From Stenotrophomonas maltophilia (lineage in GTDB: Bacteria; Pseudomonadota; Gammaproteobacteria; Xanthomonadales; Xanthomonadaceae), in contig NZ_NEQV01000001.1 of the NCBI RefSeq assembly GCF_002799245.1, positions 613,000-676,999 of the forward strand: a stretch of DNA of 64,000 bases. Reading direction: 5' to 3'. Positions 52,583-54,313 of the stretch are shown in pieces. Each line of letters begins with the position of its first letter. Position 1 is the first letter of the stretch. The notes under the pieces were generated by a model that had not been told where the DNA came from, searched no databases, and saw nothing but the letters and a program-made list of their open reading frames with translations. The position numbers and the translations under genes were made by a program.

Positions 52583-54313
52583 ATGTTCAACATCCTCATC
52601 GACACACCCAACCGCGACCAGCGCCGTGTCCGTTGCCTGCACCGCGAATGCGGGATCGGCCGCGGCGACGGCAACCTGGTGGTCCTGCAGGGTTGGAGCA
52701 TCGCCCAACGCCACGCGGCGCTGAAGCGCGAGGATCAAGGCATCTTCATCGAGAGCCTCGGAGGCCGCTCACCGGTACTGGTCAATGGCGAGCAGGTGAA
52801 AGGCAGCCGTGGCCCGCTCACCAGCCGTGACCGCGTGCAGATCGGCGACTACCTGCTGCAGGTGGTGGACGACGACCCGCCGGCCGAACCCACCGCCGAC
52901 GCCGGTAGTTTCAATGCGGGTGCGGCCAACGACACGCTGGTGGAGTCCGCGCCGGCACCGGCGCCATCACCTGCACCTGCGCAGGCATCCAACGAGCGCC
53001 AGCTGGCGCGGCCGGAGCAGCTGCCGCCGGACATGGCCGTCTACCGTGCAAAGCTGCATGCCTCCCTGGTCAAGCAGATGGACCTGCGCCGGCTGGATGT
53101 CCGGAGCATGGACGATGAGTCATTGCGCAACGCCACGATCAAGCTGATCGATGAAGTGATGCAACGGGAGTTCTCCGAGCTCCCCAAGACGATCAACCCG
53201 CGCAGGCTGGCCAAGGAAGTGCTCGATGAGGCCATTGGCCTGGGCCCGCTGGAAGACCTGATCGACGATGCGACGGTGACGGAAATCATGGTCAACGCGC
53301 ACGACCAGATCTTCATTGAACGCGCAGGCCGGATCGAAAGGTCCCCCATTGTCTTCACCAGTGACCGCGCGGTGCTCTCGGCCATCGAGCGCATCGTGAC
53401 GCCGCTCGGTCGTCGCATCGACGAAAGCTCGCCGATGGTCGATGCGCGGCTGAAGGATGGCTCCCGCGTCAACGCCATCATCCCGCCGGTAGCCCTGCGT
53501 GGCCCAAGCATCAGTATCCGAAAGTTCGCCAAGCGCAAGCTGGAAGGCAAGGACCTGCTCACATTCGGTTCCCTCAGCCAGCCGATGCTGGAGTTCCTGA
53601 TCGTTGCGGTGCGCGAACGGCGCAACATCGTCGTTACCGGCGGCACCGGCTCCGGCAAGACGACCCTGCTCAACATCCTTTCCAACTTCATTCCCGATAC
53701 CGATCGCATCGTCACCATCGAGGACGCGGCCGAACTGAAGCTGGTCCAGCCCAACCTGGTCGCCCTGGAAGCACGTCCTCCCAACATGGAAGGCAAGGGC
53801 CACATTTCCATCCGCGACCTGGTGCGCAACGCGCTGCGCATGCGCCCGGACCGCATCGTGGTCGGCGAGTGCCGCGGCGGCGAAGCACTGGACATGCTGC
53901 AGGCCATGAACACCGGCCACGAAGGATCGCTGACCACCGCCCATGCCAACAATCCACGCGAGGCGCTGTCGCGCCTGGAAGTGATGGTCATGATGTCCGG
54001 CATGGAACTGCCGATGACCGTGGTGCGCGAACAGATCTCGTCGGCGGTGGATCTGATCGTGCACCAGAAGCGCTTCCCCTGCGGCTCGCGCAAGGTCAGC
54101 CACATCACCGAGCTGACCGGCATGGAAAGCGGAACCATCCAGCTGCAGGATGTCTTCCTGTTCAAGGCACGCTCCAGCGCCGGACGCGATGGCAAGGTGG
54201 TGGGTGAGTTCGTCGCGACCGGTGCAGTGCCGGAGTTCTATGAAGAGCTTGCCGAGCGTGGCGTCTCGGTCGACCTGGACATCTTCCGCAGCGGGGGACG
54301 GCGGAATGAGTGA
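52583..54313 (+). CDS. cpaF: Tad ATPase CpaF/TadA with N-terminal FHA domain
   Basis: 576 residues, about 120 longer than a typical CpaF. Residues 1-95 form a forkhead-associated domain (GIGRGDGNLVVLQGWSIAQRHAALKRE, then GGRSPVLVNGEQ), followed by a Pro/Ala-rich linker to about 140. The ATPase has VTEIMVNAHDQIFIE, Walker A GGTGSGKTTLLN (about 353-364), the Asp box DTDRIVTIEDAAELKL, Walker B RIVVGECRGGEALD and the His box GSLTTAHANNPREAL. FHA domains bind phosphothreonine, so pilus assembly may be gated by a Ser/Thr kinase. It overlaps tadB by 8 bp. Confidence 0.92.
   Translation: MFNILIDTPNRDQRRVRCLHRECGIGRGDGNLVVLQGWSIAQRHAALKREDQGIFIESLGGRSPVLVNGEQVKGSRGPLTSRDRVQIGDYLLQVVDDDPPAEPTADAGSFNAGAANDTLVESAPAPAPSPAPAQASNERQLARPEQLPPDMAVYRAKLHASLVKQMDLRRLDVRSMDDESLRNATIKLIDEVMQREFSELPKTINPRRLAKEVLDEAIGLGPLEDLIDDATVTEIMVNAHDQIFIERAGRIERSPIVFTSDRAVLSAIERIVTPLGRRIDESSPMVDARLKDGSRVNAIIPPVALRGPSISIRKFAKRKLEGKDLLTFGSLSQPMLEFLIVAVRERRNIVVTGGTGSGKTTLLNILSNFIPDTDRIVTIEDAAELKLVQPNLVALEARPPNMEGKGHISIRDLVRNALRMRPDRIVVGECRGGEALDMLQAMNTGHEGSLTTAHANNPREALSRLEVMVMMSGMELPMTVVREQISSAVDLIVHQKRFPCGSRKVSHITELTGMESGTIQLQDVFLFKARSSAGRDGKVVGEFVATGAVPEFYEELAERGVSVDLDIFRSGGRRNE

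What the first reader, a model, noticed from the sequence alone, without database searches (positions are those of the whole stretch)
52583..54313. FHA domain fused to the Tad pilus ATPase
The CpaF ATPase has an N-terminal FHA domain with the Gly-Arg and Ser-x-x-His core residues and a Pro/Ala linker. TadZ/CpaE, the usual localisation and regulatory partner, is missing from the operon. The FHA domain might replace it by recruiting the machine through a phosphorylated protein.
Basis: partly seen in the sequence, partly recalled or inferred. Interest (0 to 1): 0.55.

Follow-up and report, generated by a model that had tools for sequence, protein, structure and literature searches.

The report
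Tad pilus motor with degenerate FHA
The motor of this bacterial surface pilus carries an extra docking domain that has lost its usual phosphate-reading residues, and it belongs to a branch of Tad pili whose operons lack the positioning protein TadZ.

Summary
The gene is real: 52583-54313(+) encodes an FHA domain, a disordered Pro/Ala linker and a CpaF core. The fusion is in print as class III CpaF and as KilF.

Phospho-recruitment is not supported here. The claimed Ser-x-x-His is absent (W38-S-I-A41-Q-R-H44: Ala at the phosphothreonine serine), the Asn-Gly motif is gone, and PF00069 finds no Hanks kinase in the genome. In its 41-row clade Ser is kept in 4, Asn in 0, while Trp38, Gly-Pro77-78 and Tyr90 are conserved.

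TadZ is missing as a rule: 0 of 64 FHA-CpaF loci, against 15 of 16 FHA-less Tad motors in a class survey, the sixteenth weakly. On the ATPase-core tree the fusion needs one change, so this is one event, not many. FHA loci also lack TadV, and 24 of 25 FHA genomes of the class survey carry an unnamed, probably secreted protein.

Best reading: a TadZ-less Tad subtype whose FHA is a phosphate-independent docking domain, perhaps standing in for TadZ.

The parts
52583..54313 (+). FHA-CpaF (class III CpaF/TadA), 576 aa
   Evidence: nearest named relative Stenotrophomonas maltophilia D457, 98% identity
52583..52876 (+). FHA domain (residues 1-98) with degenerate phosphothreonine site: R27 kept, A41 for Ser, S63 for Asn; clade-specific W38, G77-P78, Y90
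   Evidence: purifying selection
52877..53026 (+). Pro/Ala-rich disordered linker (residues 99-148)
   Evidence: pLDDT under 50 at 103-146; higher dN/dS than the FHA in four of five pairs
53027..54310 (+). CpaF core: helical N-terminal part, NTD and ATPase domain; Walker A G353-G-T-G-S-G-K-T360
   Evidence: best solved matches are CpaF structures 8rjf and 9e24
49431..50099 (+). unnamed protein, 222 aa from this start, N-terminal signal-like segment (by eye); marker of FHA-type Tad operons in the gammaproteobacterial class
   Evidence: no significant Pfam or NCBIfam match
50292..51086 (+). CpaB/RcpC
   Evidence: PF16976, 1e-24
51073..52569 (+). CpaC/RcpA secretin (start chosen by eye among in-frame starts)
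54306..55160 (+). TadB platform protein
55157..56047 (+). TadC platform protein
45920..46192 (+). Flp-type pilin candidate, 90 aa
   Evidence: Flp_Fap 0.0056, below cut-off; family shared with FHA-less Tad loci
46305..47834 (+). TadG-like protein
   Evidence: PF13400 1.5e-7
48632..49447 (+). TadE-like pseudopilin
   Evidence: PF07811 7.8e-4, below cut-off
56438..57124 (+). second TadE-like pseudopilin (named by position and appearance; no NCBIfam match)
   Evidence: profile hits in 45 of 63 FHA loci and 38 of 46 FHA-less loci
47831..48616 (+). unknown, 261 aa; found in 22 of 63 FHA loci, 0 of 46 FHA-less loci
57126..57752 (+). unknown; found in 20 of 63 FHA loci, 0 of 46 FHA-less loci (searched with the frame from 57069)

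Best explanation
This is the motor ATPase of a distinct, TadZ-less subtype of Tad pilus. Shown: an FHA fold tethered by a flexible linker to a CpaF core, in an operon without TadZ and without its own prepilin peptidase. Inferred: in this lineage the FHA no longer reads phosphothreonine. Its surface was rebuilt (Trp38, Gly-Pro77-78, Tyr90) to dock a constant, unphosphorylated partner, much as the FHA-like domains of type III secretion ring proteins are thought to work. Inferred further: up to six tethered FHA domains on the hexamer supply the anchoring or recruitment that the CpaE/TadZ ring gives other Tad machines.
For: (1) FHA fold. (2) Phosphothreonine pocket lost: Ala41 and no Asn; in the 41-row clade neither Ser nor Asn in 37 of 41; in all 89 FHA rows (88 distinct) Arg+Ser+Asn together in only 18, with at least 10 changes at the Ser and 5 at the Asn column on the tree. 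(3) Fold nevertheless kept: no FHA-less row falls inside the FHA clade, His44 in 86 of 89, and dN/dS of the domain is 0.08-0.51 in five pairs, with no amino-acid change against S. maltophilia D457. (4) No PF00069 match in this genome, nor in four more genomes with the fusion (58 of 63 fusion genomes scanned do have one). (5) TadZ: 0 of 64 FHA loci; beside 0 of 25 FHA motors against 15 of 16 FHA-less ones (sixteenth weak) in the class survey. (6) In three Elusimicrobiota loci a ParA/TadZ-like domain is fused to the same N-terminal place of CpaF. (7) Papers: CpaE was fitted as six dimers round CpaF (PMC13170226, passages); PrgH has an FHA fold whose pThr-site mutants were silent in secretion assays (PMC3635987, passages).
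Against: FHA gain and TadZ absence go with one branch, so the pattern is one event and could be coincidence. Arg27 remains in this protein, so weak phosphopeptide binding is not excluded. 18 of 89 rows keep Arg+Ser+Asn, so the ancestral and some living domains may read phosphothreonine. Most FHA-CpaF genomes scanned do have Hanks kinases (58 of 63). No partner is known, nothing was measured, and the hexamer was not modelled.
Confidence: 0.55

Rival explanations
1. The FHA is a regulatory or hexamer-organising add-on (contacting neighbouring subunits, TadB/TadC or the linker) and has nothing to do with TadZ; the lineage lost TadZ because these pili need no special positioning.
For: Gain and loss go with one branch, so linkage is not shown. 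Truncating the disordered N-terminus of Caulobacter CpaF reduces pilus extension and retraction without lowering ATPase activity (PMC12019362, abstract and passages), so N-terminal additions can be tuning devices.
Against: Trp38, three residues from the old Ser position, and Gly-Pro77-78 are newly conserved, which suggests a specific ligand; the Elusimicrobiota fusions put a TadZ-like domain at the same end.
Confidence: 0.27
2. The FHA reads a phosphothreonine protein and so recruits the machine.
For: Arg27 and His44 are kept. Arg+Ser+Asn are present in some relatives: 7 of 8 Kiritimatiellota/Schekmanbacteria rows and 11 of 30 Verrucomicrobiota-phylum rows, one of which repeats L084. All 18 genomes of the two canonical-looking groups have a PF00069 match.
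Against: Here Ser is Ala and Asn is lost; no PF00069 kinase in this genome. Kinases are common anyway: 69 of 76 genomes scanned, 13 FHA-less comparison genomes included, have a match (66 over the family cut-off), so the 18 of 18 says little.
Confidence: 0.1
3. The TadZ of the second Tad locus serves this machine in trans.
For: One full-length TadZ exists in the genome.
Against: 22 of 25 class-survey genomes with the fusion have no full-length TadZ match at all, and the TadZ here sits beside its own FHA-less CpaF.
Confidence: 0.05
4. The FHA is a vestige of a former phosphothreonine reader.
For: Loss of pocket residues.
Against: Purifying selection on the domain and conserved Trp38, Gly-Pro77-78 and Tyr90.
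Confidence: 0.03

Closest known systems
Class III CpaF (FHA-IDR-3HB-NTD-CAD), e.g. Achromobacter xylosoxidans E3HIW0 (PMC12019362)
   Same: same domain order: FHA, disordered linker, helical part, ATPase core
   Different: that paper describes the domain as binding phospho-threonine peptides; in this lineage the pocket is degenerate. The words TadZ and CpaE do not occur in its main text
KilF of the Myxococcus xanthus Kil system (PMC8460266)
   Same: Tad ATPase fused to an N-terminal FHA; the word TadZ does not occur in the main text
FHA-like cytoplasmic domain of T3SS ring proteins (YscD/PrgH/MxiG)
   Same: FHA fold with poorly conserved phosphothreonine residues inside a secretion-type machine; Pfam Yop-YscD_cpl also matches (5.6e-9), YscD among Foldseek hits
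   Different: membrane ring protein, not an ATPase; the best VIA matches here are EmbR, OdhI and GarA
Canonical Tad/Flp pilus machine with TadZ/CpaE (Caulobacter; second locus of this genome)
   Same: CpaB, CpaC, CpaF, TadB, TadC, Flp-like and TadE/G-like proteins
   Different: no TadZ, no TadV in the operon; FHA on the motor; extra unnamed protein at 49431-50099

Membership tests
Class III CpaF | N-terminal FHA domain | tested here: met
   Pfam FHA 8.8e-10; fold
Class III CpaF | disordered region between FHA and core | tested here: met
   pLDDT under 50 at 103-146
Class III CpaF | CpaF/TadA ATPase core | tested here: met
   T2SSE 2.8e-64; best PDB match CpaF. Against: the NCBIfam TadA model matches at 1.2e-96 but with 323.9 bits, under its cut-off of 373.15
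Phosphothreonine-binding FHA | Gly-Arg of the conserved core | tested here: met
   G26-R27
Phosphothreonine-binding FHA | Ser of Ser-x-x-His (role recalled from the FHA literature) | tested here: not met
   Ala41
Phosphothreonine-binding FHA | Asn of the Thr-Asn-Gly motif (role recalled) | tested here: not met
   Ser63 in the aligned column; Asn in 0 of 41 of the clade
Phosphothreonine-binding FHA | binding of pThr peptide | not testable with these tools
   needs a binding assay
Tad/Flp pilus system | CpaF + TadB + TadC + CpaB + secretin + Flp-like pilin | tested here: met
   the Flp match is below Pfam's cut-off
Tad/Flp pilus system | TadZ/CpaE, called ubiquitous in PMC13170226 | tested here: not met
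   in the window and 63 further FHA loci only receiver-domain matches at E up to 1
Tad/Flp pilus system | own prepilin peptidase TadV | tested here: not met
   no TadV in the window or in the other FHA loci; the genome has a 315-aa peptidase-A24 frame about 4 kb from a PilB/GspE-type ATPase and the 187-aa frame of the second Tad locus
T3SS SctD/PrgH-type FHA protein | FHA fold in a membrane ring protein of a T3SS | tested here: not met
   fold shared, but fused to an ATPase in a Tad operon

The most novel reading that the evidence does not exclude
Class III Tad pili are a separate machine type in which a ring of tethered, phosphate-independent FHA domains on the motor replaced the CpaE/TadZ ring in one ancient swap. 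The phosphothreonine pocket was then lost repeatedly, and in the gammaproteobacterial class an unnamed secreted protein became part of the set.
Probability: 0.35. Interest if true: 0.65.

Novelty: new variant of a known kind. Interest (0 to 1): 0.5.

Why it matters
TadZ/CpaE has been called ubiquitous in Tad machines (PMC13170226) and the FHA of class III CpaF has been described as a phosphothreonine binder (PMC12019362). The sequences argue against both as general rules. A clade spread over the gammaproteobacterial class (betaproteobacterial groups included), Verrucomicrobiota/Kiritimatiellota and one Schekmanbacterium lacks TadZ in its loci and carries an FHA that often misses the known phosphothreonine residues. 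That gives a natural experiment on what TadZ does, a clear prediction for the role of the FHA, and a new candidate Tad component.

Tried and rejected
Pfam TadZ_N (PF16968) was too weak to decide: nothing over its cut-off in this genome nor in any of 14 controls, Caulobacter included. I built my own TadZ profile. The first iteration absorbed CpaF through the Elusimicrobiota fusions and was discarded; the clean profile is that (A2 is the similar alignment used for genome searches).

A 394-aa hit 8.4 kb from CpaF in L045 (1e-13) looked like TadZ but is a receiver-histidine kinase. The other four hits in FHA loci match only the receiver domain.

G287, G288 and G190 at first counted as FHA-less CpaF without TadZ because the profile match began late; their N-termini are FHA domains, by eye, and they were moved. 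G114 at first counted as FHA-less without TadZ; a 386-aa TadZ-like gene lies after its cpaB (7.9e-20, 2.1e-21), weak and matching only profile positions 70-345. Dropped before the class count: G196 and G293 (no CpaB, CpaC or TadB/C beside the ATPase) and G225:C61 (partial match). G302's FHA-CpaF is split over two frames and was kept as FHA-bearing.

The idea that canonical FHA pockets track kinases was weak: all 18 canonical-group genomes have a match, but so do 40 of the other 45 fusion genomes. The full-length fold search listed ATPases only in its first 50 rows, so the FHA was folded alone. Trees are quick searches with SH-aLRT support only; near-duplicates and some other rows were left out by me (one search kept 103 rows; one search kept 128 after dropping five of those and adding 30, of which L195 repeats L084, so 127 differ).

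Not in print, as far as searched: searches listed no paper that I could see linking FHA-CpaF with absence of TadZ. One search showed 30 of 132 papers, and the library is open-access only. I saw passages (for some also the abstract) of ten papers and none in full; the others only as listings.

Full report
What is there. The frame 52583-54313(+) translates to 576 residues without a stop. Pfam gives FHA at 25-88 (8.8e-10), Yop-YscD_cpl at 20-97 (5.6e-9) and T2SSE at 219-504 (2.8e-64). An in-frame ATG at 52490 exists, but Met1 of the 52583 start is kept in 90% or more of 41 relatives. AlphaFold with 41 rows gives mean pLDDT 84.9, with residues 1-100 confident and 103-146 below 50. The FHA folded alone has pLDDT 93.3 and matches FHA domains of EmbR, OdhI and GarA at Z 15-16 over 92-97 residues. 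The whole model matches solved CpaF first. The nearest named relative is Stenotrophomonas maltophilia D457 at 98%. In the genus the fusion is patchy: 4 of 37 genomes (own, G036, G023, G027) match over the whole protein.

The operon. Going by Pfam and start codons: Flp-like 45920, TadG-like 46305, unknown 47831, TadE-like 48632, unknown 49431, CpaB 50292, CpaC 51073, FHA-CpaF 52583, TadB 54306, TadC 55157, TadE-like 56438, unknown 57126. There is no TadZ and no TadV. Elsewhere in the genome (C3, L122) a second Tad locus has TadV, CpaB, CpaC, a 418-aa TadZ, an FHA-less CpaF, TadB and TadC.

The phosphothreonine site. Residues 38-44 are W-S-I-A-Q-R-H, and the column that is Ser in FHA-CpaFs reading V-S-E-R-H holds Ala41. 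The roles of Arg, Ser and Asn in peptide binding are recalled from the FHA literature. Counts: Kiritimatiellota/Schekmanbacteria rows, Arg 8, Ser 8, Asn 7 of 8; a ten-row subclade from the gammaproteobacterial class, Arg 0 (Lys in 9), Ser 10, Asn 10 of 10; the 41-row clade with this protein, Arg 21, Arg or Lys 36, Ser 4, Asn 0, neither Ser nor Asn 37 of 41. In that clade Trp38 (35), Gly-Pro77-78 (40) and Tyr90 (35) are conserved; none occurs in the other 18 rows. Thirty Verrucomicrobiota-phylum rows show the same drift: Arg 13, Ser 18, Asn 14, all three 11, neither Ser nor Asn 10 of 30. These are the 30 best-scoring loci, not a random draw, and one (L195) repeats L084. Over all 89 FHA rows (88 distinct) Arg+Ser+Asn coexist in 18, His is kept in 86, and the tree needs at least 10 changes at Ser and 5 at Asn. 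The domain itself is under purifying selection: dN/dS 0.08, 0.25, 0.11, 0.21, 0.51 in five pairs and no amino-acid change against D457, while the linker has the higher ratio in all but one of the five pairs (S. ginsengisoli, 0.47 against 0.51).

Kinases. PF00069 finds nothing in this genome, while 11 of 14 controls ring. In a wider scan 69 of 76 genomes have a match, 66 over the family's cut-off. Sixty-three of the 76 carry FHA-CpaF (G023 and G334 are one genome), and 58 of these 63 match; the five without are own, G036, G306, G344 (Luteibacter) and G353. The other two without a match, G006 and G150, lack the fusion. The only other FHA protein that PF00498 finds in this genome reads A-E-Q-H and A-D-G at the matching motifs, by eye. 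Other kinase families were not searched.

TadZ across relatives. With a clean TadZ profile, the 64 loci with FHA-CpaF (window included; L129 and L130 are the same contigs as L044 and L048) give five hits at E up to 1, all confined to the receiver domain. Several of these loci are short contigs, so each absence is as good as its flank. In the class survey 276 genomes were searched and 40 had a CpaF-type match at E up to 1e-80. Sorted by N-terminus: 25 FHA-bearing genomes and 16 FHA-less Tad loci (three genomes have both; G196 and G293 dropped). Full-length TadZ (E up to 2.7e-39, match starting before profile position 50, a threshold I set after seeing the list) stands beside 15 of 16 FHA-less motors and beside 0 of 25 FHA motors; the sixteenth, G114, has a weak partial match. 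Of the 25 genomes 22 have no full-length TadZ match; for G266 and G276 only the best E-value was shown (about 1e-18), the match list being capped. Of 39 genomes behind named FHA loci, 4 have full-length TadZ (those of L048, L058, L070, L071), each beside an FHA-less CpaF. In Verrucomicrobiota 94 of 194 genomes have a CpaF-type match; in 90 of the 93 whose best row is shown it begins at profile position 47 or lower, so it includes FHA, though only the 30 fetched loci were read. I gave 80 of the 94 to the TadZ profile (the cap): 2 had any match at E up to 1e-20, one of them (G501, 4.7e-34, positions 44-383, frame with a stop) possibly a TadZ remnant. Further FHA-less ATPase matches in that phylum were not examined. 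A very divergent TadZ could escape these searches, as G114's nearly did.

One event. On trees of the ATPase core, FHA presence needs one change (103 rows, SH-aLRT 96; 128 rows, SH-aLRT 98). The clean anticorrelation is therefore one swap inherited by many, not many independent tests. Three Elusimicrobiota loci have a ParA-like domain fused to the N-terminus of CpaF (CbiA 2.4e-8, 7.8e-12, 4.3e-12 with T2SSE in one frame; TadZ profile 2.4e-20, 2.3e-14, 5.4e-22). This shows that the CpaF N-terminus tolerates a TadZ-like partner at the place where the FHA sits.

A new companion. The gene at 49431-50099 has no Pfam or NCBIfam match and a hydrophobic, signal-like N-terminus (by eye). It occurs in 48 of 63 FHA loci and 0 of 46 FHA-less loci; the 15 without it are eight loci of the Kiritimatiellota/Verrucomicrobiota/Schekmanbacteria groups, two Alcaligenaceae, two closely similar gammaproteobacterial loci, and three contigs under 9 kb. 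Across the 276 class genomes it is found in 26: 24 of the 25 FHA genomes (missing in G119) and two others, G244 (2.7e-31) and G168 (2.6e-11, partial). TadV is found in none of the FHA loci. Of 35 FHA genomes scanned, 34 have a peptidase A24 (none in G104): own, G036 and G371 have two, the other 31 one, in frames of 285-425 aa. In this genome the 315-aa frame lies about 4 kb from a PilB/GspE-type ATPase. The FHA-type pilin is therefore probably processed by a PilD-type peptidase shared with another system (inference).

How it probably works. Shown: fold, linker, core, missing partners, one change on the tree, lost pocket, kept domain. Inferred: the FHA docks an unphosphorylated partner. The precedent is the FHA-like domain of PrgH: mutating the supposed pThr residues had no effect on secretion, but deleting the domain gave immature, needle-less, secretion-incompetent basal bodies (PMC3635987, passages). 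In Caulobacter, CpaE was fitted as a ring of six dimers round CpaF and called ubiquitous (PMC13170226, passages). Six FHA domains on roughly 45-residue tethers could occupy the same zone. That they do so, and that this is why TadZ could go, is a guess worth testing.

Known and new. FHA-CpaF was described in 2021 for KilF (PMC8460266, passages) and in 2025 as class III, 'mostly found in betaproteobacteria' among 292 sequences (PMC12019362, abstract and passages). Not seen in the library searches made: that this class lacks TadZ and TadV, that its pThr pocket is repeatedly lost, that it is common in Verrucomicrobiota, and the companion gene (for which no literature search was made). Hence a new variant of a known kind.

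Noticed in passing
L109:9134-11335, L110:8352-10643, L111:9092-11308: Elusimicrobiota CpaF with a ParA/TadZ-like ATPase domain fused to its N-terminus in one frame, in three contigs.
   Followed up: partly
window 49431-50099(+): Unnamed, probably secreted protein that marks FHA-type Tad operons in the gammaproteobacterial class (24 of 25 FHA genomes, 2 other genomes of 276).
   Followed up: partly
L122 (G000:C3:54000-73999): Second Tad locus of the same genome, with TadV, TadZ and an FHA-less CpaF; the TadZ Walker A region reads G-V-R-A-G-V-G-T-S-T, without the usual lysine (by eye).
   Followed up: partly
L124:8580-9557(-): The only other FHA protein that PF00498 finds in the genome: an FHA (perhaps two in tandem, by eye) followed by a C-terminal hydrophobic segment; it too has Ala at the phosphothreonine Ser position.
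   Followed up: no
L119:3096-6682(+): Three consecutive tadZ-like genes in a Sporomusaceae Tad locus.
   Followed up: no
window 57896-63976(-): Large repetitive autotransporter-like frame (2026 aa), convergent with the Tad operon and directly downstream of it; named by eye.
   Followed up: no
G302:C7:852847-854507: FHA-CpaF split over two overlapping frames, either a broken gene or an assembly error.
   Followed up: no
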